NCBI RefSeq assembly: GCF_000518765.1
Contig: NZ_JAEF01000006.1
Span: 124,001 to 188,000 of the forward strand
Direction: 5' to 3'
Length of the DNA: 64,000 nucleotides
DNA from: Ruminococcus flavefaciens ATCC 19208
GTDB taxonomy: Bacteria > Bacillota > Clostridia > Oscillospirales > Ruminococcaceae
The position numbers and the translations under genes were made by a program. Of the stretch, positions 19,476-33,997 are shown one piece after another (the first letter of the stretch is position 1; each line of letters starts with the position of its first letter). The notes below the pieces were generated by a model, which saw nothing but the letters and a program-made list of their open reading frames with translations, searched no databases and had not been told where the DNA came from.

Positions 19476-22211
19476 TTATTTGCTTATGAGAAGCTTTCTG
19501 AGTCCGATACTGTCGAAGATGTCAATAACTCCGTCATAGTTGATATCTGCATATGCCGAGCTTGTTACAGGTTCGTTTTTCAGCAGGAATTTCTGTAGCA
19601 TTACAAGGTCTGCAACAGTTACGTCTGTATCAAAATTTACATCGCCTGTACGCGCTTTTTCGGGAGTGAGTATTATTTTCTGATTCTTTGTACCGTTATA
19701 ATCTTCAAGACGGCAGGAGAGGATATAGTTGTTGTCGCTGCCGCTGTTGATGACTGTAACGCATTTTTCATTCTGCACAAGGGAATACGAGCCGTCTTTA
19801 TTGCAGGTGACTCTGAATTTCTGTGAGCTGTCGGCTGTGTATTCCTTTGCAGTGATATTTCCTGCACTGTCAGATGTGAGTGCGTCGCCGTACTTGTTTA
19901 TAATTGTATAGCTGCCGTCATCAAGTTTGTTGAATTTCCAGATATGGTCGTCTGCGTGATTTAATGAGTCGCCGTTTATTTGATGTATCTGCATATAGCT
20001 GTCTAAATTGAGGTTCCTTTCGGCTGAATTGTACAGCCAATCTGAGAAAATATCGCGCATTGAATATGTACCGTCAGTTACGGTTGGGTGAACAGCTTCA
20101 AGGCTGAACAGCTGGCAGTCATCGCCTCTGTATTCCCACTGGTTGATGTTTCCACCGTTCTCTTTTGACCATTCATATACGTCAAATCCGCTTTTGTCAT
20201 TGGACGAAGCGGTAACTATACCGTAGTATGAGCCTTGCTTTTTTATCATGAACTTCTGATTTTCTGCGCCTGTGAACTCCTGTAATTCAATGTTTACGCC
20301 GTCGCTGCCTGAATTTTCTGCAAGACCGATGCATTTGTGCTCATCGCCTGCGGAGAGGATACAGAAGTATTTTTCGTCAATAGACGTGAGTTTCCACTGC
20401 TGTGCCCAGCTTCCGTTGAATTCCCATTGCTGTATGTTAGTCCCGATATCAAGGCTGCCGTTGGGTAGGTCTACAGCCTTACCGCTGTTACGGTTGATGA
20501 TGTAATATGATACATCGGAGTGAAGGTCGGTACCTGAAATATAGGGAGTATAGCTGCTTGGCAGCAGAAAATCTGTGGAATATACTATCTTTGAGTCTTT
20601 GTCAGTGTAATCTGGAATGCCTGTTTTACGCTCTGAGCCGTTGTATTCCTTTGTCTGCACACCCCATACGGTCTGGTTGTTGCTGCCTACAGCGGTAAAG
20701 GACATTACCTTTTTGCCGTTTTCGTCCTTGGCTGCAAGGAAGTAACCGCTGTATTTCTGACCGCCTATTGTTATCTCAGCAGCCGCGCTCTCCTGCGACT
20801 GTGACCATTTACCTGTGACTGCACCGCTTATTGTACCGTCGGAATTGAGTTTTATGCTGCTGTAGTTTATTATCTTTCCGTCTGTGGAGGTGCCGTGGTT
20901 GATGAATTCATAGTCGCCGATAATATCGGAGTCATCGTAGCCAGATGCAGATATCTCGTCGCCTGCATATTCGTATGGGGCTACAACAGGCCAGCCTTCA
21001 TCGTTGAAGTACATGGAGTGTACACGAACCTCGTGGAATTCTGCTCCGTCGTCAAAACGTGTGTGATATACAAGATACCATTTGCCGTCATCGTCACGGA
21101 GTACGGAGTTATGTCCGCAAGCCATATATGCCTTGCTAAGTGAGCTGAATTTGTAGTTGCCCATTACCTTCAGACCAGTGGAGTCGAGGTTGGGATTTGT
21201 GGGGAGAACTGCCTGTCTGCCTGCGGGATCGGTAAACGGTCCGAGAGGCGATGCGGAACGGAATACACGCATATTATACCCGCCTGTTGAGGTGAGTCCG
21301 CCGAATGTTACCCATAAGTAATAGTAGCCTGTATCGGCATTGTATTCGATGAAGGGACCTTCACCTGATTTGCCGTAGCCCCCCGATATCTTTGTGCCGA
21401 AGTAGCTGTCCACCATTCTGCCGTCAGAGGTAGTGCCTGTTTTCGGGTGTATGCACTGTCCGGTTTTCGGATCTATCTCAAGGGTGAATATACCGCCTGA
21501 CCATGAGCCGTAGCACATATACATCTTTCCGCTGGTGTCATAGTATATGGTAGGGTCGATGGCGTTTGGGAAGAGCTGATTGTTGAAGTCGTTGTTTCTG
21601 AACCAGCTGTTGTTGAAGCTTACCTGTCCTGCGGCAATAAGCTCGTCTATGTTCGTGGAGGTGTACTTCTTGTTCACGTTTTTTGTTGAACTCTTTACAT
21701 ATGTGTCATTGTTTGTGAAGCCTGAATAAATGAGAGTATCCACAAATGTGTACGGTCCTTCAATGTTCTTTGCTGCGGCATAAGCTATTACCGAGCGCAT
21801 ATATGTTGAGGAGGTGCAGAAGTACATGAGGTACGCACCTTTGCTGCCGTCGGAGTTGATATAGTCTGCGTCCCAAACAACATCGGGTGCCCATACTGCA
21901 AAGCCGCCTGCGCAGTCCTCAAGGTCTTCGCCTGCCCATGCAAAGGCTTTTTGCAGATTTTGTGAAAGGCTGCCGAATTCAACATTATTTGTGGTGGCAT
22001 AGCCGTTTGAAAAACGTTTCCAGTTACGCAGATCAGTGGTCTTTGCAGCTTCGATATGTGAACCGAATACATAATATGTACCGTTATCCTTGACTATAGA
22101 AGGATCGTGTACGGATACGCGCTGATTTGCTGCAAAAGCACTAAGTCCCGTGAATGCCGATAAAAATATGCAACCTGAGACAGCTGCTGATATTAGCTTT
22201 TTCAATTTCAT
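19476..22211 (-). CDS. GH43 arabinanase/xylosidase-like enzyme with ricin-B lectin and dockerin
   Basis: The 911-residue protein has a signal peptide (1-28). The five-bladed GH43 domain runs to about residue 420, with catalytic residues readable as D36 (VHDPSI), D219 (IDPTIYY) and E284 (GEGPFIEY). A small beta domain (about 430-535) follows. CBM13/ricin-B-like repeats lie at about 550-850 (NRNSGKAVDLPNG, IQQWEFNGSWAQQWKL). The C-terminal dockerin has GDVNFDTDVTVADLV and ADINYDGVIDIFD. Layout and catalytic-domain motifs favour action on arabinan or arabinoxylan side chains, but GH43 specificity cannot be settled by eye. The dockerin would attach it to a scaffoldin. Its dockerin is of the same style as that of the serpin. 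Confidence 0.92.
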   Translation of the reverse strand: MKLKKLISAAVSGCIFLSAFTGLSAFAANQRVSVHDPSIVKDNGTYYVFGSHIEAAKTTDLRNWKRFSNGYATTNNVEFGSLSQNLQKAFAWAGEDLEDCAGGFAVWAPDVVWDADYINSDGSKGAYLMYFCTSSTYMRSVIAYAAAKNIEGPYTFVDTLIYSGFTNNDTYVKSSTKNVNKKYTSTNIDELIAAGQVSFNNSWFRNNDFNNQLFPNAIDPTIYYDTSGKMYMCYGSWSGGIFTLEIDPKTGQCIHPKTGTTSDGRMVDSYFGTKISGGYGKSGEGPFIEYNADTGYYYLWVTFGGLTSTGGYNMRVFRSASPLGPFTDPAGRQAVLPTNPNLDSTGLKVMGNYKFSSLSKAYMACGHNSVLRDDDGKWYLVYHTRFDDGAEFHEVRVHSMYFNDEGWPVVAPYEYAGDEISASGYDDSDIIGDYEFINHGTSTDGKIINYSSIKLNSDGTISGAVTGKWSQSQESAAAEITIGGQKYSGYFLAAKDENGKKVMSFTAVGSNNQTVWGVQTKEYNGSERKTGIPDYTDKDSKIVYSTDFLLPSSYTPYISGTDLHSDVSYYIINRNSGKAVDLPNGSLDIGTNIQQWEFNGSWAQQWKLTSIDEKYFCILSAGDEHKCIGLAENSGSDGVNIELQEFTGAENQKFMIKKQGSYYGIVTASSNDKSGFDVYEWSKENGGNINQWEYRGDDCQLFSLEAVHPTVTDGTYSMRDIFSDWLYNSAERNLNLDSYMQIHQINGDSLNHADDHIWKFNKLDDGSYTIINKYGDALTSDSAGNITAKEYTADSSQKFRVTCNKDGSYSLVQNEKCVTVINSGSDNNYILSCRLEDYNGTKNQKIILTPEKARTGDVNFDTDVTVADLVMLQKFLLKNEPVTSSAYADINYDGVIDIFDSIGLRKLLISK

Positions 22212-22406: not shown

Positions 22407-22435
22407 TTGGAAATATGTGAAATCTGTGCTATAAT
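22407..22435 (+). promoter_or_regulatory. Promoter of the cobalamin operon
   Basis: TTGGAA at 22407-22412, 17 bp spacer, TATAAT at 22430-22435 with an extended TGnTATAAT. Confidence 0.8.
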
Positions 22436-22474
22436 ACACTTGTATTCATGGATATTTTAAATCAATGAAGATAA

Positions 22475-22660
22475 ACGGTGCCTTTCGGCTGATGCCGCAA
22501 AGGTTAAAAGGGAAGCAGGTGCGATGCCTGCACGATCTCGTCACTGTGATCGGGCAGCATTTTTTCACGTACATCGTACAGCCACTGTGTAAAAACGGGA
22601 AGGCGGAAAAATGTGCTATTGCCTGTAAGTCAGGAAACCTGCCGCTTATCGGTACATGGG
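22475..22660 (+). ncRNA. Cobalamin (AdoCbl) riboswitch
   Basis: The element has the ordered signatures of the class: GGTGCC near its 5' end, AAAAGGGAAGCAGGTGCGA, GCCACTG, GGGAAGGC, and the B12 box AAGTCAGGAAACCTGCC at 22627-22643. The terminator at 22730-22756 is the expression platform, so bound cobalamin should switch off the operon. It lies before a CbiK-type gene and BtuFCD-type genes, consistent with B12 control. Confidence 0.95.
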
Positions 22661-22729
22661 ATAATTCCCAAGATCACGAGGCATTGATCGTACCATTGGC
22701 GCCCGTAAAAAGACGGGTTTATTGTGATG

Positions 22730-22756
22730 CCTTCTGCCTGAGCGGAAGGTCTTTTT
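22730..22756 (+). terminator. Riboswitch terminator
   Basis: CCTTC-GC and GC-GAAGG arms around CTGA, then TCTTTTT. A second hairpin CCCGT/ACGGG at 22702-22717 lies just upstream and could be part of the switch. Confidence 0.8.
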
Positions 22757-22798
22757 GCGCACGACCTATGTCTCCTGAAAAAACAGGAGGAAAAGAAA

Positions 22799-23845
22799 AT
22801 GAAAATGAGAAAAATGATCGCAGCCGCTGCTGCACTTACACTTACTGCTGCCTGCTTCAATTCATGCGGCGACAGCGAGAAGAAGGACGGCAATGATTCA
22901 ACTGCAACTGAAGCAACTACAACTGCTGTAACAACTGAGGCTGATACAACCGAAGCAACAGAAGCTGAAATAACTACTGAGGCTGAGGAAGACGATGAAG
23001 AGAACTACGATACAGGTGATGCTTCTCTCGATAATATCAGAAATCAGGACGAGATCGGTGACAATGAGCTCCTCGTTATAAGCTTCGGTACAAGCTTCAA
23101 CGACAGCCGCCGTCTTACTATAGGTGCGATCGAGAACGCTCTCGAAAAGGCATTCCCTGATTACTCGGTTCGCCGCGGATTTACTGCAAATATCGTTATA
23201 GACCATGTTAACAAGAGAGACGGCGTTCTCATTGATGATATCGACGCTGCTCTTAAAAGAGCTGTTGACAACGAAGTAAAGACTCTCGTTGTTCAGCCTA
23301 CCCACCTTATGAACGGTCTTGAGTATGAGGAGCTTACAGACAAGATCGCTGAGTACTCAGATGCTTTTGATAAGGTTGTTATCGGTGAGCCTCTCCTCAC
23401 AAGCGATGATGACTTTGCTAAGGTAGAAAAGGCTATTACTGAGTGGACAAAGGAGTATGATGACGGCGAGACAGCTATCTGCTTCATGGGTCATGGTACT
23501 GAGGCTGAGTCAAATGAAGTATACCAGAAGATTCAGGATCTGCTCACAAACGACGGCTTCAAGAATTACTATGTAGGCACTGTTGAAGCTACCCCTTCTT
23601 TAGATGACGTTATTGCAAAGGTAAAGGAAGGAAACTATAAGAAGGTCATTCTTGAGCCTCTTATGGTAGTTGCAGGTGATCACGCCAATAACGACATGGC
23701 AGGCGATGACGAAGATTCATGGAAGTCTGCATTCCTTGCTGAGGGCTATGACGTTGAGTGCTTACTGAGAGGTCTCGGTGAGAACGAGGATATCCAGAAG
23801 CTCTACGTTGAGCACGCTCAGAAGGCAATTGACTCTGTAAAGTAA
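22799..23845 (+). CDS. cbiK: Surface lipoprotein with CbiK-type (sirohydrochlorin cobaltochelatase) domain
   Basis: The 348 residues have a lipoprotein-type signal with two candidate lipid Cys (C19 in LTAAC, C23 in FNSC), an acidic Thr/Glu spacer to about 75, and then a complete class II chelatase domain. It opens with LLVISFGTSFNDSR. Expected metal/tetrapyrrole histidines are all kept: H169 (VQPTHLMNG), H232 (FMGHGTEAE) and H295 (AGDHANNDMAGDD). Cytosolic CbiK inserts Co2+ into sirohydrochlorin, but this copy should be outside the membrane, like the periplasmic CbiK-P known in Desulfovibrio. Placement behind a B12 riboswitch and before an uptake system suggests corrinoid or metal handling at the surface, rather than de novo synthesis. 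No other cobalamin biosynthesis gene is in the window. AGGAGG lies seven bases upstream. Confidence 0.88.
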   Translation: MKMRKMIAAAAALTLTAACFNSCGDSEKKDGNDSTATEATTTAVTTEADTTEATEAEITTEAEEDDEENYDTGDASLDNIRNQDEIGDNELLVISFGTSFNDSRRLTIGAIENALEKAFPDYSVRRGFTANIVIDHVNKRDGVLIDDIDAALKRAVDNEVKTLVVQPTHLMNGLEYEELTDKIAEYSDAFDKVVIGEPLLTSDDDFAKVEKAITEWTKEYDDGETAICFMGHGTEAESNEVYQKIQDLLTNDGFKNYYVGTVEATPSLDDVIAKVKEGNYKKVILEPLMVVAGDHANNDMAGDDEDSWKSAFLAEGYDVECLLRGLGENEDIQKLYVEHAQKAIDSVK

Positions 23846-23861
23846 AAAAAAAATTGAAATT

Positions 23862-23884
23862 GCAGCCGGCTTTATGTCGGCTGC
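23862..23884 (+). terminator. Intercistronic hairpin, possible partial terminator
   Basis: GCAGCCG and CGGCTGC arms with a nine-base loop, followed by TTCATT. The weak T tract suggests partial termination or RNA processing between the first and second genes. Confidence 0.45.
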
Positions 23885-23904
23885 TTCATTAAGAGGTAAT
23901 TAAT

Positions 23905-24837
23905 ATGTATAAAAAACTTGCTGTAGTATCACTTTTATTAACCGCTGCTGTACTGACTTCATGCGGCAATAAGAATAATTCATCTGAGTCTGAGGCAAAG
24001 ACTACAACTGCTTCTGTTGAGACTACAACAGAAGCTGAAACAACTACCGCTGCCGAGACCGAAGCAGAAACAACTACCGAACAGGTCACTGCACCTCAGC
24101 AGGAGGTCGGTTACGAGGGCATGGTGGCTGTTGCAGCTGATAAGCTCAAAGACGGTGAATACGATATAAACGTTGATTCAAGCTCTTCAATGTTCAAGAT
24201 AACCGAATGTAAGCTTACAGTTGCAGACGGCAAAATGACTGCAAAGATAACAATGAGCGGAAGCGGCTACGAATATCTGTTCATGGGTACTGGTGAAGAT
24301 GCATCAAAGGCTTCCGAAGATGATCTTATCAAGGCTGAGGAAAGCGGAGATGTGGTTTCTTTCACTGTGCCTGTTGAAGCTCTTGACAAGGAGATCGACT
24401 GTGCTGCTTACAGCAAGCGCAAGGGAATGTGGTATGACAGAACCCTTGTGTTCCGTGCCGATTCATTGTCTGATGAAGCTTTTACAGAAAGCAGATATAA
24501 TACCGCTGAGTCTCTCGCTCTCAAGGACGGAGAATACGATATTGATATTAAGCTCGAAGGCGGCTCGGGAAAAGCCTCTGTTGTTTCGCCGGCAAAGCTT
24601 ACTGTCAAAGACGGAAAGGCTTCTGCCGAAATAATCTGGAGCAGCAACAAATATGATTATATGGTAGTTGAAGATGAGAAGATAATGCCTGTAAGTACAG
24701 AAGAATTCTCAATATTCGAGATACCTGTTACGGGCTTTGATTATAAGATGCCGGTTAAGGCTGATACTACGGCTATGAGTACACCCCATGAGATAGATTA
24801 TACTATCTTCTTTGATTCTTCTACAATTACCGAATAA
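23905..24837 (+). CDS. Lipoprotein with two tandem beta-rich domains, B12-regulated
   Basis: A 310-residue protein with a lipobox (VLTSC, Cys20) and a Thr/Glu-rich spacer to about 70. Two related domains follow: about 78-195 (KLKDGEYDINVDSSSSMF, KLTVADGKMTAKI, YLFMGTGEDA, KEIDCAAYSKRKGMWYD) and about 205-308 (ALKDGEYDIDIKLEG, KLTVKDGKASAEI). The second lacks the Tyr/Arg/Lys-rich SKRKGMWYDR segment. The shape recalls small surface ligand-binding domains such as NEAT, but I cannot confirm this. It sits in the riboswitch-controlled operon, between the chelatase and the binding protein, so a surface receptor or relay for corrinoids or haem-like rings is a reasonable guess. No function is established. 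Confidence 0.8.
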   Translation: MYKKLAVVSLLLTAAVLTSCGNKNNSSESEAKTTTASVETTTEAETTTAAETEAETTTEQVTAPQQEVGYEGMVAVAADKLKDGEYDINVDSSSSMFKITECKLTVADGKMTAKITMSGSGYEYLFMGTGEDASKASEDDLIKAEESGDVVSFTVPVEALDKEIDCAAYSKRKGMWYDRTLVFRADSLSDEAFTESRYNTAESLALKDGEYDIDIKLEGGSGKASVVSPAKLTVKDGKASAEIIWSSNKYDYMVVEDEKIMPVSTEEFSIFEIPVTGFDYKMPVKADTTAMSTPHEIDYTIFFDSSTITE

Positions 24838-24838
24838 T

Positions 24839-25951
24839 ATGCTTAAACGTGTATTCTTTGCAGCGGCTGCACTTGTTCTGATCGTTGGCTGTGCCGACAG
24901 GAAAAGTACAGCCTATGTTTCTCAGGGCGGAAAAATGCTTGAGCTGAAATACGCTCAGCAATTTTCGGCGGAGTATATCGACAATGACTGTGTGCTTCTG
25001 ACTATAGGTGAGGATAAGTATGTTGTAGTCCCCGAAAATGGTGAAGCTCCCAAGTCGGCAGGTGACGCCGTTGTTATACAGCAGCCGCTGAATAACGTAT
25101 ACAATGCAGCTTCATCTGCTATGGATCTCATTGACGGAGCAGGCGCGCTGGCTGATGTCACCATGACTTCCACAAAGTATGATGACTGGAGCTTGCAGAA
25201 TATCCGTGACAGGATAGACAGCGGAGATATTACATATATCGGCAAGTACAGCGCTCCCGATTATGAGGCTCTTCTTGAAGAGGAATGCGGACTTGCAATT
25301 GAGTCTACCATGATATATCACAGTCCAGAGGTCAAGGAGCAGATAGAAGCTCTCGGCATACCTGTGCTGGTAGAGAGATCAAGCTACGAAAAAGACCCTC
25401 TCGGCAGAATGGAATGGATAAAGCTTTACGGTATCCTGTTCGACTGCGAGGAACAGGCGCAGAAGCTCTTTGATGAGAAAACAAAGCAGATAGAAGATAT
25501 ACTCACTGAGGAAAACACAGGTAAAAAAGCAGCTTTTTTCTATATCAACTCCGCAGGCGGTGTGGTAGTCCGCAAGCCAGCGGATTACGTTCCCGAAATG
25601 ATGAGAATGGCAGGTGGAGAGTACATCTTTTCAAATGACGACCTGAAAACCGATGAGAATGCCCTTTCTTCCATGACTATTCAGCCTGAGTCCTTTTATG
25701 AGAAGGCATGGGACGCTGATATAATTTTCTATAACAGCGATATAACAGGCGGTGTAAGCAGTATAGATGATATCACAGCGAAATATCCTCTCATAAAAGA
25801 TTTTACTGCCGTAAAAAACGGTGAGGTCTGGTGTACGGAAAAAAATGTATTTCAGCAGACTACAGGTGCTGCTGATATGATAAAGGAGTTTCACAGCGTT
25901 TTCAAGGGTGAAGCCGATGACAATATGAATTTTATGTATCGTCTGGAGTGA
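24839..25951 (+). CDS. Cobalamin/iron-type ABC transporter substrate-binding lipoprotein (BtuF-like)
   Basis: The 370 residues start at the ATG one base after the previous stop; an upstream in-frame ATG lies inside the preceding gene and is rejected. The lipobox is IVGC (Cys18). The class III binding fold follows: VVIQQPLNNVYNAASSAMDL, DITYIGKYSAPDYEALLEE, GIPVLVERSSYEKDPLGRMEW (with helical backbone), and AVKNGEVWCTEKNVFQQT. Binding proteins of this group carry B12, haem or siderophores to a FecCD-type permease. The upstream cobalamin riboswitch makes a corrinoid the most likely ligand. The downstream permease gene begins at its stop codon. Confidence 0.88.
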   Translation: MLKRVFFAAAALVLIVGCADRKSTAYVSQGGKMLELKYAQQFSAEYIDNDCVLLTIGEDKYVVVPENGEAPKSAGDAVVIQQPLNNVYNAASSAMDLIDGAGALADVTMTSTKYDDWSLQNIRDRIDSGDITYIGKYSAPDYEALLEEECGLAIESTMIYHSPEVKEQIEALGIPVLVERSSYEKDPLGRMEWIKLYGILFDCEEQAQKLFDEKTKQIEDILTEENTGKKAAFFYINSAGGVVVRKPADYVPEMMRMAGGEYIFSNDDLKTDENALSSMTIQPESFYEKAWDADIIFYNSDITGGVSSIDDITAKYPLIKDFTAVKNGEVWCTEKNVFQQTTGAADMIKEFHSVFKGEADDNMNFMYRLE

Positions 25952-25953
25952 TA

Positions 25954-26970
25954 ATGATGAAAGCACAGCGGCAGCGAATTATACTTGGATATATCTTGTT
26001 ACTTGTAATGCTCGTATTGCTTGCGGTTATTAATATCTGTGCAGGAAGTGCTGATATATCCGTTCACAGAATGATAAATGCACTTCAGCACCCCGAGTCT
26101 GACAAGGCTGCGTACAATATAATAACAGGACTGAGACTTCCTCGTACCGCTGCGGCTGTTATCCTCGGAGGAGCATTGTCTGTTTCGGGATTTTTACTTC
26201 AGAATTTCTTTGCAAATCCTATTGCGGGTCCTTATATCCTCGGTATATCATCAGGTGCAAAGCTTATGGTGGCGCTGCTTATGGTGTTTTCATTGTCACG
26301 GGGCTTTGCTGTGAATTCATTCGGCATGGTAACTGTGGCTTTTATAGGTTCAATGATATCAATGGGTATCATTCTGCTCATATCGGGCAAGGTCAAACGT
26401 ATGTCGGTGCTTATAGTCTGCGGTGTTATGATAGGATATATATGCTCTGCTGTTACTGAGCTTGTGGTGAATTTTTCCGACGACTCCAACATCGTGAACC
26501 TGCATAACTGGTCAATGGGAAGCTTTTCGGGTATCGGAAAGGGCGACGTACTTACTTCGGCAGCTATAGTTTTTCCTGCCTGTATCCTTGCTTTCATGCT
26601 TTCAAAGCCTATGAACGCTTATCAGCTCGGTGAAGAATATGCAGTAAATTCGGGAGTACATATAAAAGCCTTCAGAGCTTCGCTGATACTGCTTTCAAGT
26701 GTGCTTTCAGCCTGCGTTACGGCTTTTGCAGGTCCTGTTTCCTTTGTGGGGGTTGCAGTGCCCCATATCATAAAAAGCGGATTCGGTACGGCAAAGCCTA
26801 TTCGTATTCTTCCTGCCTGCTTTCTCGGAGGTGCGGTGTTCTGTCTGCTGTGCGACCTGATAACGCGAACGCTTTTTGCTCCTACGGAGCTGAGTATAAG
26901 TACGGTAACGGCTGTATTCGGTGCGCCTGTGGTCATATATATGCTTCTTCACAAAGAAAGGAGAGGCTGA
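25954..26970 (+). CDS. FecCD/BtuC-type ABC transporter permease
   Basis: About 338 residues with roughly nine to ten TM helices. FecCD marks are present: GLRLPRTAAAVILGGALSVS, GFLLQNFFANPIAGPYILGI, and FAGPVSFVGVAVPHI near the C-terminal coupling region. It moves the ligand delivered by the BtuF-like lipoprotein. GTG at 25948 and ATG at 25954 or 25957 are all possible starts; GGAG at 25945 favours one of the ATGs. It is tightly packed between the binding protein (overlap) and the ATPase (one base gap). Confidence 0.92.
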   Translation: MMKAQRQRIILGYILLLVMLVLLAVINICAGSADISVHRMINALQHPESDKAAYNIITGLRLPRTAAAVILGGALSVSGFLLQNFFANPIAGPYILGISSGAKLMVALLMVFSLSRGFAVNSFGMVTVAFIGSMISMGIILLISGKVKRMSVLIVCGVMIGYICSAVTELVVNFSDDSNIVNLHNWSMGSFSGIGKGDVLTSAAIVFPACILAFMLSKPMNAYQLGEEYAVNSGVHIKAFRASLILLSSVLSACVTAFAGPVSFVGVAVPHIIKSGFGTAKPIRILPACFLGGAVFCLLCDLITRTLFAPTELSISTVTAVFGAPVVIYMLLHKERRG

Positions 26971-26971
26971 A

Positions 26972-28084
26972 ATGAACGGGATAATGCTTAGCACAAAGGC
27001 TCTTTCGGCAGGCTACGGCAAAAAGGTCATAGTTGAGGGCGTTGAGATAAATGCGGAGCAGGGGAAGATACTGACTCTCATAGGTCCTAACGGTGCTGGA
27101 AAGTCCACTGTGCTGAAAACTATCTGCCGACAGCTAAGACCTCTTGGCGGCGCTGTTTATATTGGAAAAGAAAAGCTCGATGATCTGAGCGGCAATCAGC
27201 TTGCAAGGTCGGTATCGGTGCTTCTTACAGGCAGGGTAAAGGCCGAATATATGCGCTGCATAGACGTTGTTGAGACAGGACGTTACCCCTATACGGGCAG
27301 GCTGGGAGTGTTGTCCGACAAGGACAGGGAAAAGGTAAGGGAAGCGCTCAGGCTCGTTGATGCTGAGGATATTGCGGAATGTGACTTCGACAGGATAAGC
27401 GACGGTCAGCGTCAGAGGATAATGCTTGCAGGAGCTATATGCCGTGAGCCTGATATCCTTATACTCGATGAGCCGACAACTTTTCTTGACATAAAGTACA
27501 AGCTTGAACTTATGAATATACTGAAAAAGCTTGCCTCTGAGCGGCATATAGCTGTTATAATGTCCCTTCATGAGCTGGAGCTTGCTCAGCGTGTTTCAGA
27601 TACTATCATCTGTATAAAAGGAAACGGCATTTACCGCACAGGTACTCCAAAGGAAATATTCTCGGGAAGCTGCATAGAGGAGCTTTACGGAGTAGAAAAG
27701 GGAAGCTTCTGTAAAGCCTATGGTTCGCCCGAGCTTGGAAGGCTTAATTCCGCTCCCGAGGTGTTTATAATCGGTGGCGGCGGAAGTGCAGTAGCTTTGT
27801 ATCGAAGTCTCCGCTGTAATGGTATAGCCTTTGCGGCAGGTATCATACATGAGAATGATATCGAATATCCTGTTGCTGCTGCTCTTGCATCAAAGCTTGT
27901 TTCGGAGCAGGCTTTCGAGCCTGTTTCAGATGAGAAATATGAAGAAGCACTGCAGCTTATGAGAAGTTGTGGAAATGCTGTTTGTACCATTGAAAGCTTT
28001 GGCACTATGAATGAGAAATGCAGGCAGCTCATGTTGGAAGCTGAGAAAATGGGGATTTTAAGAGGTATAGAGTCATATGAGTGA
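26972..28084 (+). CDS. BtuD/FecE-type ABC ATPase with extra C-terminal domain
   Basis: The 370 residues start at the ATG after AAAGGAGAGG. The first ~250 are a normal importer ATPase: Walker A IGPNGAGKST, signature ISDGQRQR (SDGQ instead of SGGQ), Walker B ILILDEPT, and switch His in MSLHELELA. About 110 more residues follow that typical FecE/BtuD proteins lack: a Rossmann-like start EVFIIGGGGSAVALYRSLR, then AAALASKLVSEQAFEPVSD and CTIESFGTMNEKCRQLMLEA. The extension may bind a nucleotide or a corrinoid-related ligand and regulate transport; that is inference. It is the energy unit for the permease upstream. Confidence 0.9.
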   Translation: MNGIMLSTKALSAGYGKKVIVEGVEINAEQGKILTLIGPNGAGKSTVLKTICRQLRPLGGAVYIGKEKLDDLSGNQLARSVSVLLTGRVKAEYMRCIDVVETGRYPYTGRLGVLSDKDREKVREALRLVDAEDIAECDFDRISDGQRQRIMLAGAICREPDILILDEPTTFLDIKYKLELMNILKKLASERHIAVIMSLHELELAQRVSDTIICIKGNGIYRTGTPKEIFSGSCIEELYGVEKGSFCKAYGSPELGRLNSAPEVFIIGGGGSAVALYRSLRCNGIAFAAGIIHENDIEYPVAAALASKLVSEQAFEPVSDEKYEEALQLMRSCGNAVCTIESFGTMNEKCRQLMLEAEKMGILRGIESYE

Positions 28085-29024
28085 TAAGTCGTTGCTTACT
28101 AAGAAAATAGTTGTGCTGCCGCTGACCATGCTTTGCTGTCTGCTGTGGGGAAGTGCTTTCCCGTGCATAAAGCTTGGCTGCGGATATTCGCATATAGCCT
28201 CTGATGATACCTATACCCAGATATTGTATGCAGGACTAAGATTTACTCTTGCAGGCATTCTTGCTGTTCTTATTGGCAGTATCATTCAGAGAAAGCTGCT
28301 TATACCGAGGAAAGAAACGATACCCAAAGCTGCAAAGCTGTCGCTTTTTCAGACTATACTGCAATATACATTCTTCTATATCGGACTTTCAAGAAGTACG
28401 GGCATGAAAAGCTCTGTAATTACGGCTTCAAATGTGTTTCTTTCCATAATCGTTGCTGCTGTTGTTTTCCGTACCGAAAAGCTTACTGTAAAAAAAATAG
28501 CAGGCTGCCTGATCGGATTTTCAGGTGTGGTACTCATTAATCTCAGCGGTATCGGCGGTGGCTTCAGGCTTACGGGAGAAGGTTTTGTGTTTTTGTCCGC
28601 GCTGTCTTATGCCTTTTCGGCAGGACTTATAAAACGTTATTCTCACACTGAGGATACGGTGCTTCTCAGCGGCTGGCAGTTTATCATAGGCGGTATTGTT
28701 ATGACTGTTTTCGGGTGTATTACAGGTGGGAGGATCACTGTGATCAATACAAAAGGGATATTCATGCTGCTTTACCTTGCCTTTGTTTCTGCGGCTGCGT
28801 TCTCAATATGGGGCGTACTTCTGAAACACAATCCTGTTTCCATGATTTCTGTTTTCGGCTTTATGAATCCTGTTTTCGGAGTTATTCTTTCGTATCTTCT
28901 TCTGTCGGAGAGAAGCGAGGCAGGTCCGTACAGGGTGGCAGCTGCGCTTTTACTTGTGGCAGCAGGCATTATTATTGTAAATTTTGCTCCCAGAACAAAT
29001 AAACTAAGTAAAAAAACAGTATAA
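28077..29024 (+). CDS. EamA/DMT-family permease
   Basis: A 315-residue protein with about ten TM helices in two EamA repeats (LPLTMLCCLLWGSAFPCIKL; the second around LSALSYAFSAGLIKRYS and SIWGVLLKHNPVSMIS). The ATG overlaps the end of the ATPase gene by eight bases, so it belongs to the B12 operon. EamA proteins export or import small metabolites, amino acids or nucleosides; which one cannot be read here. Being under the riboswitch suggests a cobalamin-linked substrate such as a lower-ligand precursor or a breakdown product, but it could be a passenger. Confidence 0.9.
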   Translation: MSDKSLLTKKIVVLPLTMLCCLLWGSAFPCIKLGCGYSHIASDDTYTQILYAGLRFTLAGILAVLIGSIIQRKLLIPRKETIPKAAKLSLFQTILQYTFFYIGLSRSTGMKSSVITASNVFLSIIVAAVVFRTEKLTVKKIAGCLIGFSGVVLINLSGIGGGFRLTGEGFVFLSALSYAFSAGLIKRYSHTEDTVLLSGWQFIIGGIVMTVFGCITGGRITVINTKGIFMLLYLAFVSAAAFSIWGVLLKHNPVSMISVFGFMNPVFGVILSYLLLSERSEAGPYRVAAALLLVAAGIIIVNFAPRTNKLSKKTV

Positions 29025-29128
29025 AATCCGGAATGGCAAGGCTGTTTTTTTACGCGTATGAGCTATAGCAAAGAAAAAACGATTCTTTTTGCTCATAAAA
29101 TATGTGAACTGTCACACTAAAGTTATAT

Positions 29129-29163
29129 AAAAAGGAATCCCGACATTGTCGGGATTCCTTTTT
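29129..29163 (+). terminator. Terminator of the cobalamin operon
   Basis: GGAATCCCGAC (29134-29144) and GTCGGGATTCC (29148-29158), a perfect 11 bp stem flanked by A5 and T5. Confidence 0.9.
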
Positions 29164-29371: not shown

Positions 29372-32300
29372 ATGAAACTAAAAAAAGCAATAGCAACACT
29401 TTCTGCTGCTGTACTGACTGTTTCAGCATCTCTTGCTTATTTCCCTTCAAAACCGATAAGCAAACACATACTGACAGCAAACGCAGAAACGTCTGCCCCG
29501 ATTTCCATAGAAGGTAATATAATATGGGAACCGATCAAGGCAGAAGACATCAAAGAAACTGAAGACGGCTGGCTGTACACCGAAAGTGATGATGAAATAA
29601 CCATCACAGGCTATAAAGGCTCGGATACCGAGCTGAAAGTACCGTCAACCATTGACCAGAAAACAGTAACAGCGATCAGCAATGAAGCTTTCAGCGGCAA
29701 TTCAAAACTTGTAAGCATTGATCTCGGAACTGTTAAGAAGCTCGGAAATTACTTATTTAAGGATTGTCCTGAACTTAAAGAGATCACGATACCTAAAACT
29801 GTTGCCTATGGCGGAAGCGACAAGGGTGGTGCTCTTAAAGGAAGCAGCGTAGAAAAAGTGATATTTGAATCAGGAATACAGTCTGTACCTGATTATATCT
29901 GTAACGGTGCTGAAATGCTTGATACAGTGGAATTTCCTACAATTAAGGCGACAAAGAACGGATTTACCATTGGAAAATATGCTTTTGCAGACACATCATT
30001 ATCAAGTATTGAGATTCCTGAAAATGTAACTGAGCTTGGCGAATCAGCTTTTATGGGCTGCTCTATACTGAAAAATATCATTCTTCCTGAGTCACTAAAA
30101 ATAATAAGTGAATTCTGTTTCAGCGGCTGTGAATTATTGACCGAACTCAAACTTGGTACGAATGTTACTACTGTTGGAAGAAATATGATCGAAAAATGCA
30201 GCAAGATCAAGGAACTCACTATCCCTGCATCTGTTACTGCGATAAGAACAGATGCAGTATGTAACGGCTGCCTTTACGGAAGCAGCGTTAAAAAGGTAAT
30301 ATTTGAGGACGGAACGAGAAACATCGTTAGCTTCATTTGTCGTGATTCTTCTGAGCTTGAAACTATCGTTCTGCCGGAAAGTGTAGAAAATATCGGTGAA
30401 AGTTCATTCAGAAACTGTCCAAGGATCAAAACCATATCTCTTCCGGAAAATGTTGAAAGTATAGGTAACAGTTGTTTCAGTGACTGTACTGCTCTTGAAA
30501 GCTTTACATTCAACAAGAATGTCAAAAACCTCGGACATGATCTTTTCAACGGCTGTAAAAAGCTCAAGGAATTAACCATCCCTGCAAGTGTTGAAAATGT
30601 TGATAGTAAATTTGATCTTTACGGTTGTCTTGCAGGATGCGGTGTAGAGACTGTTATATTTGAAGAGGGAATAAGGAGCATACCCCATTGCATTTGTGCA
30701 GGTGCAACACAGCTTAAGACTGTAATAATTCCCGAAGCTCCTTCAAAAACGTTGGAAGGCTTTTCTATTGGTTCGAGCGCATTTGAAGGAACTGCTATTG
30801 AATCTATAGAGCTGCCTGCAAGCCTTACAAATATTGGTGCGTCCGCATTTGAAGGCTGTTCGCTTCTTAAATCAATTTCACTTCCTGACGGACTTAAAAC
30901 CCTTGAAAAAGAATGCTTCAAGGATTGTGTCCTGCTTACAGAGCTTGAAATACCGAGCAGCGTTACAACTCTTGGTGAGAAAATGATAAGCGGCTGTAAT
31001 AAGATCAAATACCTCGATATCCCAGCAGGCGTTACTAATGTAAGCGGCGAGACTGGAATTGTTGGTGGAAACAGAGTTGATACAGGAGTTATTGCAGGAA
31101 GCGGTGTTGAATATCTCAGCTTTGGAAACGGCATGAAAAAAGTTCCCGAGTATATCGCAAAAGATGCTCAGGAATTAAAGACCGTAATACTTCCCGATAC
31201 TGTTACAGAGATCGGCAATCACGCTTTTGAGAACTGCACAGCTCTTAAAAAAGTTGAATCTTCAAACTCATCTCTGAAATTCAGTTCAAATACATTTATG
31301 GGCTGTGAAAGCCTCAACGATAAGCGTTTAACTGTATTTGATCCTAAAAATACATACTTCATTGCCAATACAGAGCGAGGAAGTGTAAACGGTATCATAA
31401 ACTATAAGCTCAAATATGATCTGCTCCCTTCTGTTATAAGCGACGCACAGAGCATGAAGCTGAATATCAATGTACCCGATGGTTTAACACTTATGCTCGA
31501 TACTATCCGAAGCAAGAATATGAATATCAATACAGATGACATTCAGGAGGGTGTTATCCCTGTAAATTCAAGAAGCGGAGAGATGGAATTCTCAGTACGT
31601 GTTACAGATATCGGCAATTACAAGATAACAGCTTCTCTTACATTTGAGTCCAACAAGACAAAATGGGATCAGCCTATAGGAAGTGTATATGTTGATTGTC
31701 CTGATATCACTATCGGTGCACCAACAGTAGTTAATAGTTATGAAGCAGAAGTGTACGGCGTATCACAGCGCGATCACGATGTTGAGATATTCGTGAACGA
31801 CAAGAGTGCAGGTGTATTCAGAACAAATAAGTCTACAGGAAAATATCACGGAACTATTTCTCTTCCTGAATCGCCTGATGGTTCGGTTTATACTCTTTAT
31901 GCAAAATGCGGAAGTCTGAAGAGCGATGAGATAAAAGTTGAATACTCCGCAGGCAGACCTTCTGTAAAAAAGGTCGTTTTTAAATACGGTGTTCACGGCA
32001 ATAAATATGAAGAACTTGATATTACTGATGTATTTACAAAGGGTGCAACACCTGTTGTTGAATATCATTCTAATCTCGGCTTTGATATAACTACTGTAAA
32101 CACAGATCAAATTGACAGACTGTTTGTTACAAGCCAGAAGGGCAATGACATCAAATACATAGAAGCGTTTTATAATCCTGAAAAAGACTTATGGAGCACT
32201 GAAGGAAACTTCGATGAAAATGATCCGCACTACGTCCCCGGTACTCTGAATATATTCATTCTTGAAAAAGAAAAATCCCCTTCATACGAAGATCTTATGT

Positions 32301-33997
32301 CTTTAACAACAGGTTTTGAAAATGTTCCGCAGGAATTCTATGACAACAGCAATGTCGAACTGCTTGCTAAAGATGATGCTTCCAAAGCATTTTGTGTAAA
32401 AATAAATATTTCAGACGGCAAAACAAGTAATTCGTTTGATTTTTATTACAACGAAAATGCAAGTGGAGCTTATATTAATGGCACGTATTATACATTAGAA
32501 GAAATATCTCAAAATTATAAATCACTTGGTCTTTACGATCCGGGTATAACATTAATTGAAAATAATAAAAAAGTAAAATATTATATTGCCGATTCAAATC
32601 CTGATGTTATTTTAGGTGATATAAAAGCAAACAGAAAGAATGTACCTTCAATATTTGCAAGTAATAAGGTCAAAGCAGAATCCGACGATAATGTATTTGA
32701 TGTAATAGGCGATATATACAATGTGTCTGCCGGTGAAATGTCAGGAACCACATGGTTTAAATGCATTGAAGGAAAAGATGCAGATCATCCTGTATTCCAG
32801 ATAATCAATCAATATGCGTCTAAGGGATATATGGACTGCATGAAGAGCATGTGGGGCTCTGACTACGGCGATATTGTAAAAGGATTATCAGTTGCCAGTG
32901 ATACTTGGAACTGGGCTTCACAAATGTATAGAGCAGGCAATAACCAAAATTACAAGGATTGGGCTACAGCTATATATGCTTTAAAATGTATAAAAACATT
33001 TGGTGGAGCATATATATTAGGAGCATTAGGAGTTCCGCCAATTTTAATTCCAGTTGCATCATGGTGCCTCGGTCAAGCGATTAAAACAATGGAAGATTAT
33101 CTTGAGCAATGTATGAAAAATGGTGAAGATCCATCATTTAAAGGTTTCTTACAATATATTACCCCAGCTCATCTCAAATGGATATGGGATCCAAGCGGTG
33201 CAGTCTATGATGCCGACAGCGGAGAACCAATAAAGGATGCAACTGTCACGCTCTATTACCTTGATCCCGAAACGGGGGAGAGTGTAAAATGGAATGCGGA
33301 GGACTACGATCAGATGAATCCTCTTAATACCGACAGCGACGGAAACTACTTATGGGACGTTCCAGAGGGAAAGTGGAAGGTTGTTTGCCATAAGGACGGA
33401 TATGAAGATGCAGAGTCAGAATGGCTTGAAGTTCCTCCTATAAGAACAAATGTTAATATTACTATGAAAGCAAGCAACAAAGCAAGTACAACAAGTACTG
33501 CAACTGCTACAACTACAGTTACTACCACAACGAGCAAAGCTTCGACAACTACTACAACTAAACCTGCAACAACCACAACATCAACTACTACAACTAAATC
33601 TGCAACAACCGCAACATCAACTACTACAACTAAATCTGCAATAACCACTACATCAGCACTTAAAACATCTACTAATACATCGACTACTACAAAGGTAACA
33701 ACTACATCTGTTACTACAACAACAGTTTCATCTCCAACTGATTATATGCTAGGTGATGTTAATAATGATAAACTGATAAATGCAGTTGATGCTTCTTCGA
33801 TACTTAAATATTATGCCCTGGTTTCGACTAATAAAGATGGCGGATATAATGATAATCAGAAGCTTGCAGCCGACGTTGACCATGACGGTATGATAAACGC
33901 TGTTGATGCGTCGAATATCCTTGCATACTATGCGTATGCTTCAACAACGGAAGAAAATGTTATATCACTTGAAGCATTTATGAAAAAAGCAAGTTAA
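29372..33997 (+). CDS. Giant secreted BspA-type leucine-rich-repeat protein with C-terminal dockerin
   Basis: The 1541 residues have a signal peptide (about 1-38). An LRR_5/BspA region at about 80-650 has repeats such as ELTIPASVTAIRTDAV and ESIGNSCFSDCTALESFTF, arranged in larger ~120-145-residue blocks. Beta-rich modules follow (about 690-900). The segment at about 1000-1270 has a different, more AT-rich coding style and a hydrophobic stretch (YILGALGVPPILIPVASW). A carboxypeptidase-regulatory-like domain follows at about 1275-1360 (GAVYDADSGEPIKDATVTL), then a Thr linker and a dockerin (GDVNNDKLINAVDASSILKY, ADVDHDGMINAVDASNIL). Such proteins usually bind surfaces, polysaccharides or host/partner cells. 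No enzyme motif is seen. Own promoter and terminator. Confidence 0.9.
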   Translation: MKLKKAIATLSAAVLTVSASLAYFPSKPISKHILTANAETSAPISIEGNIIWEPIKAEDIKETEDGWLYTESDDEITITGYKGSDTELKVPSTIDQKTVTAISNEAFSGNSKLVSIDLGTVKKLGNYLFKDCPELKEITIPKTVAYGGSDKGGALKGSSVEKVIFESGIQSVPDYICNGAEMLDTVEFPTIKATKNGFTIGKYAFADTSLSSIEIPENVTELGESAFMGCSILKNIILPESLKIISEFCFSGCELLTELKLGTNVTTVGRNMIEKCSKIKELTIPASVTAIRTDAVCNGCLYGSSVKKVIFEDGTRNIVSFICRDSSELETIVLPESVENIGESSFRNCPRIKTISLPENVESIGNSCFSDCTALESFTFNKNVKNLGHDLFNGCKKLKELTIPASVENVDSKFDLYGCLAGCGVETVIFEEGIRSIPHCICAGATQLKTVIIPEAPSKTLEGFSIGSSAFEGTAIESIELPASLTNIGASAFEGCSLLKSISLPDGLKTLEKECFKDCVLLTELEIPSSVTTLGEKMISGCNKIKYLDIPAGVTNVSGETGIVGGNRVDTGVIAGSGVEYLSFGNGMKKVPEYIAKDAQELKTVILPDTVTEIGNHAFENCTALKKVESSNSSLKFSSNTFMGCESLNDKRLTVFDPKNTYFIANTERGSVNGIINYKLKYDLLPSVISDAQSMKLNINVPDGLTLMLDTIRSKNMNINTDDIQEGVIPVNSRSGEMEFSVRVTDIGNYKITASLTFESNKTKWDQPIGSVYVDCPDITIGAPTVVNSYEAEVYGVSQRDHDVEIFVNDKSAGVFRTNKSTGKYHGTISLPESPDGSVYTLYAKCGSLKSDEIKVEYSAGRPSVKKVVFKYGVHGNKYEELDITDVFTKGATPVVEYHSNLGFDITTVNTDQIDRLFVTSQKGNDIKYIEAFYNPEKDLWSTEGNFDENDPHYVPGTLNIFILEKEKSPSYEDLMSLTTGFENVPQEFYDNSNVELLAKDDASKAFCVKINISDGKTSNSFDFYYNENASGAYINGTYYTLEEISQNYKSLGLYDPGITLIENNKKVKYYIADSNPDVILGDIKANRKNVPSIFASNKVKAESDDNVFDVIGDIYNVSAGEMSGTTWFKCIEGKDADHPVFQIINQYASKGYMDCMKSMWGSDYGDIVKGLSVASDTWNWASQMYRAGNNQNYKDWATAIYALKCIKTFGGAYILGALGVPPILIPVASWCLGQAIKTMEDYLEQCMKNGEDPSFKGFLQYITPAHLKWIWDPSGAVYDADSGEPIKDATVTLYYLDPETGESVKWNAEDYDQMNPLNTDSDGNYLWDVPEGKWKVVCHKDGYEDAESEWLEVPPIRTNVNITMKASNKASTTSTATATTTVTTTTSKASTTTTTKPATTTTSTTTTKSATTATSTTTTKSAITTTSALKTSTNTSTTTKVTTTSVTTTTVSSPTDYMLGDVNNDKLINAVDASSILKYYALVSTNKDGGYNDNQKLAADVDHDGMINAVDASNILAYYAYASTTEENVISLEAFMKKAS

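What the first reader, a model, noticed from the sequence alone, without database searches (positions are those of the whole stretch)
22407..29163. B12-riboswitch operon with a surface-anchored CbiK chelatase and uptake system
A textbook cobalamin riboswitch controls six genes: CbiK-type lipoprotein, two-domain lipoprotein, BtuF-like lipoprotein, BtuC-like permease, BtuD-like ATPase with an extra domain, and an EamA permease. The chelatase keeps all three catalytic histidines but carries a lipoprotein signal and a charged spacer, so it should work outside the cell. No other corrin-synthesis gene is present. This suggests surface metal or tetrapyrrole handling linked to corrinoid uptake, possibly a cobalt-insertion or haem/corrin relay step, instead of de novo synthesis. 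A periplasmic CbiK is known in Desulfovibrio; the Gram-positive surface version in a transport operon seems little described.
Basis: partly seen in the sequence, partly recalled or inferred. Interest (0 to 1): 0.72.

Follow-up and report, generated by a model that had tools for sequence, protein, structure and literature searches.

The report
Surface cobalt insertion feeding B12 synthesis
A rumen-type bacterium with the genes for late vitamin B12 synthesis, but with none found for making the starting ring, appears to keep its only cobalt-inserting enzyme on the outside of the cell beside a B12-controlled importer, so the first committed step of B12 synthesis may happen outside the cell.

Summary
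The operon is real: an Rfam cobalamin riboswitch (the genome's only one) precedes a CbiK-type lipoprotein, a tandem-NEAT lipoprotein, a heme-type binding lipoprotein, FecCD permease, ABC ATPase and EamA. HemB, HemC and SirC were not found, so no route to sirohydrochlorin is visible. In a family sample, 14 genomes carry the lipoprotein: 14 have CbiD (29 of 105 others do), 0 have the CbiM cobalt importer (12 of 25 with cytosolic chelatase), 8 have it beside cbi/cob genes; so do 43 of 80 named loci. Catalytic His/Glu are kept in 80 of 80. Best reading: the cell captures sirohydrochlorin-type rings, inserts cobalt at the surface and imports cobalt-sirohydrochlorin for CbiL, under B12 feedback. Substrate, direction and activity are inferred. 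Main rival: the lipoprotein only binds or de-metallates the ring. "Tetrapyrrole precursor salvagers" were predicted before; I found no uptake route in my searches. P. gingivalis, with a related surface CbiK and a corrin pathway lacking early steps, may be a parallel.

The parts
22407..22435 (+). promoter-like site (TTGGAA-17-TATAAT) ahead of the riboswitch
   Evidence: consensus scan only; 19 such sites in the region against 13.1 (sd 3.8) in shuffles
22459..22660 (+). cobalamin riboswitch aptamer RF00174, sole copy found in the genome
   Evidence: cmscan 99 bits, E 1.6e-23; whole-genome search 1 match
22729..22750 (+). terminator-like hairpin followed by CTTTTT, probable expression platform
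   Evidence: 8 such sites against 5.3, sd 2.9, in shuffles; read directly
22799..23845 (+). exported CbiK-type cobaltochelatase, lipoprotein with acidic/Thr-rich spacer
   Evidence: PF06180 1.4e-82; Foldseek to 1qgo TMt 0.94; H232, H295, E175, E263 invariant in 55 aligned sequences
23905..24837 (+). lipoprotein with two NEAT domains (heme/porphyrin-binding fold)
   Evidence: PF05031 9.7e-9 on residues 80-170, 45 of 64 aligned members match; model pLDDT 87; VIA Z 13.0 to IsdX1 for residues 204-309
24839..25951 (+). substrate-binding lipoprotein of the BtuF/IsdE kind (ATG start chosen)
   Evidence: PF01497 4.6e-31; only PDB sequence match Lmo2184, 5joq, E 1.3e-4
25948..26970 (+). FecCD/BtuC-type permease
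   Evidence: PF01032 2.8e-78
26969..28084 (+). ABC ATPase with C-terminal extension (start chosen at 26969)
   Evidence: PF00005 9.3e-26; best NCBIfam match corrinoid ABC ATPase NF007082 over residues 6-353, 206 bits against a cut-off of 537
28077..29024 (+). EamA-family permease, lineage-specific, not part of the conserved core
   Evidence: PF00892; 4 of 80 loci

Best explanation
The operon is the front end of the cell's corrin (B12) pathway rather than a B12 uptake system. Sirohydrochlorin-type tetrapyrrole made by other organisms is captured at the surface; the CbiK lipoprotein inserts cobalt there; the tandem-NEAT lipoprotein and the heme-type binding lipoprotein pass the planar cobalt ring to the FecCD/ABC importer; inside, CbiL (on another contig) begins corrin synthesis from cobalt-factor II. 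The B12 riboswitch closes the system when B12 is plentiful. Shown: gene content and order, riboswitch, export signals, active-site conservation, NEAT fold, no HemB/HemC/SirC found, no second CbiK/CbiX found, no CbiM found, linkage to cbi genes in relatives. Inferred: the substrate, catalysis outside, the order of hand-over, the direction of transport.
For: Own genome (98.5% complete): CbiK and CbiX searches ring only at the lipoprotein; corrin cluster on C2; HemC not found, HemB not found, best PF13241 match 3.1e-5 in a 466-aa frame, while same-genus G019 has 3.9e-36; CbiM not found. Family sample of 119 genomes: lipoprotein type in 14; 14 of 14 have CbiD against 29 of 105 others; CbiM 0 of 14 against 12 of 25 with cytosolic CbiK/CbiX, Fisher p 0.0026. 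No separate CbiX in any of the 14, a cytosolic CbiK besides only in G012. HemB not found in 11 of the 14, nor in 38 of 48 genomes behind the named loci. Linkage to cbi/cob genes: 8 of 14 genomes in the stretches fetched, 43 of 80 loci, in several with cbiP next upstream. His145, His207 and Glu89 equivalents kept in 80 of 80. Where cytosolic-CbiK genomes lack both HemC and SirC, a FecCD permease gene lies within 4 kb of cbiK in 5 of 7, against 0 of 15 others (noticed afterwards, p 0.0008).
Against: No biochemistry. HemB, HemC and SirC are all present in G019, G118 and G005 (3 of 14), and HemB in 10 of 48 named-locus genomes, so scavenging foreign rings is not the only use; in G019 the SirC protein matches the CysG N-terminal domain (160.6 bits, cut-off 62.3) and might insert cobalt inside. 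Seven cytosolic-CbiK genomes also lack HemC and SirC, so loss of ring synthesis does not by itself call for a surface chelatase. Thirteen of 25 cytosolic-chelatase genomes lack CbiM too, other cobalt carriers were not searched, and the genomes are related, so p-values overstate independence; counting signal-anchored G006 as exported gives CbiM 1 of 15, p 0.013. G067 shows no NEAT gene in the stretch fetched and G005 and G111 have a different order. HemA, HemL, HemD, SUMT and CobN-type chelatases were not searched in G000. NCBIfam's CbiK equivalog cut-off is not reached (232 of 400 bits). NEAT domains and the Lmo2184-like binding protein point to heme at least as readily as to sirohydrochlorin.
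Confidence: 0.57

Rival explanations
1. The ring is imported by this operon for corrin synthesis, but the CbiK lipoprotein is only a binding or de-metallating protein (for example taking iron out of siroheme); cobalt is already in the ring or enters inside by an unrecognised or non-enzymatic route.
For: FetB of P. gingivalis, a surface CbiK homologue, is deposited as a heme-binding protein; IhtB is thought to remove iron from heme (passage).
Against: Catalytic His pair and Glu kept in 80 of 80; no second CbiK/CbiX found in 13 of 14 genomes; a review passage says uncatalysed Co insertion is negligible at buffered Co.
Confidence: 0.21
2. The operon imports finished corrinoids (cobalamin, cobinamide) and the CbiK domain is a corrinoid-binding surface protein.
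For: B12 riboswitch; BtuC and corrinoid-ATPase models are the best NCBIfam matches of permease and ATPase.
Against: In the family sample found only in genomes with CbiD (14 of 14); linked to cbi genes; NEAT is a porphyrin-binding fold; active site conserved; BtuC cut-off not reached.
Confidence: 0.12
3. It is a heme or iron scavenging system like Isd or Iht that has come under B12 control.
For: Tandem NEAT domains; binding protein nearest to listerial Lmo2184; FetB homology.
Against: The genome's only cobalamin riboswitch lies here; co-occurrence and linkage with corrin genes. A Fur-type box was not searched.
Confidence: 0.07
4. The lipoprotein is retained in part in the cytosol and simply serves as an ordinary chelatase there.
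For: It is the only CbiK/CbiX found in a corrin-making genome.
Against: An export signal by my rule in 79 of 80 homologues, the other cut by its contig end; conserved order with two further lipoproteins and an importer.
Confidence: 0.03

Closest known systems
Salmonella CbiK, class II sirohydrochlorin cobaltochelatase (PDB 1qgo)
   Same: 35% identity over 257 columns, TMt 0.94; His145, His207, Glu89 kept
   Different: cytosolic (recalled); here exported, in an importer operon, and the genome's only copy found
Iht system of Porphyromonas gingivalis (IhtB; that PDB FetB, 9b86, is the same protein is recalled)
   Same: CbiK-like lipoprotein with binding protein, permease and ATPase (passage); FetB 35% identity, TMt 0.88; its host lacks the steps to precorrin-2 yet a functional corrin pathway is reported (passage and reference title)
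   Different: has a TonB receptor; no NEAT protein in the described set; proposed role is iron removal from heme; FetB groups with Desulfovibrio CbiKP, not with this clade (long branches)
Desulfovibrio vulgaris CbiKP (PDB 2xvx/2xvz)
   Same: exported CbiK, 29% identity; a cobalamin riboswitch is reported near cbiKP of Oleidesulfovibrio alaskensis, D. vulgaris being cited for the same (passage)
   Different: that organism has two functional CbiKs (title in a reference list); separate branch of the tree
Tetrapyrrole precursor salvagers of Shelton et al. (PMC6461909)
   Same: complete corrin steps, missing early tetrapyrrole genes (passages)
   Different: that work gives a metabolic class and ALA dependence of three species; the passages I saw name no importer or surface chelatase
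Isd/Hbp NEAT hemophores
   Same: NEAT fold, VIA Z 13.0 to IsdX1; two-domain matches to IsdH and IsdB
   Different: B12-riboswitch operon, lipoprotein anchor, paired with a chelatase

Membership tests
CbiK class II cobaltochelatase | PF06180 domain over its gathering score | tested here: met
   277.4 bits against 26.2
CbiK class II cobaltochelatase | NCBIfam sirohydrochlorin cobaltochelatase equivalog cut-off | tested here: not met
   232.1 bits against 400; so a CbiK-fold relative that may work like one, not a certified equivalog
CbiK class II cobaltochelatase | catalytic His145, His207 and Glu89 | tested here: met
CbiK class II cobaltochelatase | Co insertion into sirohydrochlorin | not testable with these tools
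   needs an enzyme assay
NEAT protein | NEAT fold and PF05031 over its cut-off | tested here: met
   36.1 bits against 32.8 for the whole protein, but 23.5, below cut-off, in the six-frame genome search; 45 of 64 aligned members match at E 0.001; NEAT structures are the best fold matches
NEAT protein | heme ligand Tyr and heme binding | not tested
   several Tyr are invariant in 64 members but the ligand was not mapped
BtuCDF corrinoid importer | BtuC equivalog cut-off | tested here: not met
   206.4 bits against 334
BtuCDF corrinoid importer | corrinoid binding and transport | not testable with these tools
   needs binding and uptake assays
Cobalamin riboswitch RF00174 | covariance model over gathering score | tested here: met
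   99 bits against 31.5; also in 7 of 7 further loci scanned
Iht system (P. gingivalis) | CbiK-like lipoprotein + binding protein + permease + ATPase | tested here: met
   Iht composition from a passage of PMC10913741
Iht system (P. gingivalis) | common descent of the exported CbiK | tested here: inconclusive
   FetB falls outside the clade, but on long branches
Tetrapyrrole precursor salvager | corrin ring and loop genes present | tested here: met
   several single models fall short of NCBIfam cut-offs (CobS, CbiG, CbiC, CobD, CobC, CobU) while the best match is the expected family
Tetrapyrrole precursor salvager | all genes upstream of the precursor missing | tested here: inconclusive
   HemB, HemC, SirC not found; HemA, HemL, HemD, SUMT not searched

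The most novel reading that the evidence does not exclude
In relatives that do make sirohydrochlorin (G019 has hemA-sirC-hemC-cobA/hemD-hemB-hemL; also G118, G005) the only CbiK/CbiX found is still the exported one. If their SirC does not insert cobalt, these cells must send sirohydrochlorin out, load cobalt outside and take it back: an out-and-back step in the middle of a biosynthetic pathway, which would spare them a cobalt importer. Loss of ring synthesis in R. flavefaciens-type strains would then be a later turn to scavenging other cells' rings.
Probability: 0.15. Interest if true: 0.92.

Novelty: new variant of a known kind. Interest (0 to 1): 0.8.

Why it matters
It gives a candidate answer to two open questions: how predicted tetrapyrrole precursor salvagers obtain their ring, and how P. 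gingivalis can have a functional corrin pathway without making precorrin-2 (the 'enigma' paper of 2000, known to me by its title and by Shelton's sentence). It would put a committed step of B12 synthesis outside the membrane, explain a B12 maker without the CbiM cobalt importer, and define a metabolite (sirohydrochlorin) shared between gut microbes. It also warns annotators: in the genomes examined this CbiK+Btu operon goes with B12 synthesis, not with lack of it.

Tried and rejected
Rejected: corrinoid uptake in place of synthesis (co-occurrence and linkage with corrin genes). Rejected: EamA as a general exporter (4 of 80 loci). Led nowhere: the riboswitch regex was wrong and found one site; corrected. 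A profile search of the NEAT alignment against PDB sequences gave nothing significant; the fold search did. Paper searches: NEAT domain + cobalamin + riboswitch (0 papers); any two of CbiK, NEAT domain, cobalamin riboswitch (9 papers, none with NEAT domain); CbiK + lipoprotein + heme + chelatase (2); sirohydrochlorin uptake (16); others. They showed me no account of this system, but only the open-access library was searched, most hits were seen as listings, and passages were read in nine papers.

Rows dropped before counts: of 45 genomes over the CbiK cut-off, six with partial or short matches (G052, G085, G109, G049, G017, G099) were not fetched; G069 and G054 (no CbiD) and G006 (signal anchor, no lipobox) are in neither group; G011, G026, G053 have CbiD but no CbiK/CbiX was found. 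The comparison group of 25 is 22 genomes with cytosolic CbiK and three with CbiX (G010, G045, G116). Thresholds for true SirC (E below 1e-19) and true CbiM (below 1e-50) were set by me at gaps in the lists. One search used 13 lipoprotein genomes; G005 was added after its N-terminus was read, and one search uses 14. One search was given 48 of the 80 loci and 30 G genomes. The tree left out eight rows that one search had listed as long, and used 9 named loci in place of 21. The FecCD count leaves out the three CbiX genomes, whose loci were not fetched. L128 (G118) was fetched but not read.
Full report
OBSERVATION. The window holds a cobalamin riboswitch at 22459-22660 (99 bits), followed by a terminator-like hairpin and six ORFs to 29024. 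Pfam assigns CbiK, NEAT, Peripla_BP_2, FecCD, ABC_tran and EamA. In the 3.59-Mb genome it is the only cobalamin riboswitch, the only CbiK and the only NEAT match, the last at 23.5 bits, below the cut-off, in the six-frame search. No corrin gene lies in the window.

NOT AN UPTAKE-ONLY GENOME. CbiD was found on contig C2. The genes around it match, as best NCBIfam families, CbiL, D, F, G, H, J, ET, A, P, B, C and CobT, U, S, C, D; some single models fall short of their cut-offs (CobS, CbiG, CbiC, CobD, CobC, CobU), and one 129-aa ORF has no match. No chelatase is among them, and CbiX matches only the lipoprotein itself. HemC, HemB and a convincing SirC/Met8 were not found in this genome, while same-genus G019 has all three. 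So the steps after cobalt insertion are there, none of the three searched steps before it is, and the one chelatase carries a lipoprotein signal. HemA, HemL, HemD and SUMT were not searched.

HOW GENERAL. CbiK-NEAT-BtuF-BtuC-BtuD stand in this order in 57 of 80; 13 contigs end within 5.5 kb of the cbiK start; in the other 10 one or two of the genes were not recognised, in some of which a neighbour is unusually long. A riboswitch core motif lies near the start of cbiK in 64 of 73 loci with 500 bases upstream (regex); Rfam confirmed it in 7 of 7 loci scanned. 43 of 80 have corrin genes within the fetched flanks, many of which are cut by contig ends.

FAMILY SAMPLE. In 119 genomes of 118 genera, 45 pass the CbiK cut-off; I fetched 38 of these besides the window's own and classed them by N-terminus and neighbours. 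Fourteen have the lipoprotein type: G000, G005, G012, G019, G028, G035, G038, G061, G067, G075, G080, G096, G111, G118. In G067 no NEAT gene was recognised and in G005 and G111 the order differs. All 14 have CbiD, against 29 of the other 105; cytosolic CbiK is tied to CbiD nearly as tightly (22 of 24 fetched), so the lipoprotein behaves like a synthesis gene. By a riboswitch lies 329-574 bases before the CbiK domain in 11 of 14, 2.2-3.8 kb before it on the same strand in two (G067, G005), and none on the contig of G080. CbiM: 0 of 14 against 12 of 25 (p 0.0026); with signal-anchored G006 added, 1 of 15 (p 0.013). HemC: 4 of 14 (one a partial match, G012, which lacks HemB) against 16 of 25. SirC: 4 of 14 against 18 of 25. 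Nine of 14 lack both HemC and SirC (all). Kinship makes these p-values optimistic. G012, the only one of the 14 with a cytosolic CbiK too, has a lipoprotein almost identical to that of G038, another genus, and may be a mixed bin.

HEMB. HemB was not found in 38 of 48 genomes behind named loci, including R. flavefaciens Y1, ND2009, FD-1 and YL228; 28 of the 38 have corrin genes beside the operon. Many are MAGs of unstated completeness.

A SECOND ARCHITECTURE. Seven genomes with cytosolic CbiK also lack HemC and SirC; in five of them a FecCD permease gene lies within 4 kb of cbiK, in none of 15 others. This was noticed after the fact and some stretches are short, but it fits the idea that FecCD importers stand in for lost ring synthesis, with the chelatase either inside or outside.

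ACTIVE SITE, FOLD, DESCENT. Residues equivalent to Salmonella His145, His207 and Glu89 are kept in all 80 (seven loci that missed a regex were read). The model matches 1qgo, FetB 9b86 and CbiKP 2xvz (TMt 0.94, 0.88, 0.90). The NEAT lipoprotein models well (pLDDT 87) and matches NEAT structures. With G005 labelled as a lipoprotein, lipoprotein CbiKs form one clade (99/93) within clostridial cytosolic CbiKs, with signal-anchored G006 next to it; FetB and CbiKP sit elsewhere, on long branches (one search had G005 mislabelled). So a surface CbiK seems to have arisen more than once.

MECHANISM AND LIMITS. The most economical reading is surface capture and cobalt loading of sirohydrochlorin, import as cobalt-sirohydrochlorin, and B12 feedback. 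The ring's identity is inferred from the enzymes not found and from what CbiL needs (pathway knowledge). A binding or iron-removing role for the lipoprotein, with cobalt entering otherwise, is the main rival. In G019, G118 and G005 a cytosolic SirC is present; that of G019 matches the CysG N-terminal domain and might insert cobalt inside.

LITERATURE. Shelton et al. (PMC6461909; passages) predict tetrapyrrole precursor salvagers and cite P. gingivalis as lacking the steps to precorrin-2; of the 2000 paper I saw only the title. PMC10913741 (passages) describes Iht and says IhtB is not regulated by PgFur. PMC6460266 (passages) reports, as unpublished data, that disrupting a B. fragilis CbiK gene did not affect use of heme iron. 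PMC11124144 (passages) reports a cobalamin riboswitch near cbiKP. My searches (open-access library, mostly listings) showed no account of a surface chelatase as the source of cobalt-sirohydrochlorin for corrin synthesis.

Noticed in passing
G012 (L113) and G038 (L115): Lipoprotein CbiK sequences almost identical between two genera (end branches 0.003 and 0.009); either a mixed bin or recent transfer.
   Followed up: no
G011, G026, G053: CbiD present but no CbiK or CbiX found: corrin makers without a recognised chelatase.
   Followed up: no
L104, L109, L112, L119, L123 (G002, G048, G051, G088, G084): FecCD permease genes beside cytosolic cbiK in genomes lacking HemC and SirC; possible sirohydrochlorin importers of a second kind.
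   Followed up: partly
L090 (G006): CbiK with a signal-anchor-like N-terminus but no lipobox, next to the lipoprotein clade, in a genome that keeps CbiM, HemB and HemC: a possible intermediate.
   Followed up: partly
window 19476-22211 (-) and 29372-33997 (+): Flanking genes encode large secreted proteins with dockerin-like C-termini (my reading of the translations), as in cellulosome-forming ruminococci.
   Followed up: no
window 26969-28084: C-terminal extension of the ABC ATPase has no Pfam match; NF007082 covers part of it.
   Followed up: no
L065, L073, L077, L079: No separate NEAT gene recognised and a 620-691-aa binding-protein ORF, as if the NEAT and binding lipoproteins were fused.
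   Followed up: no
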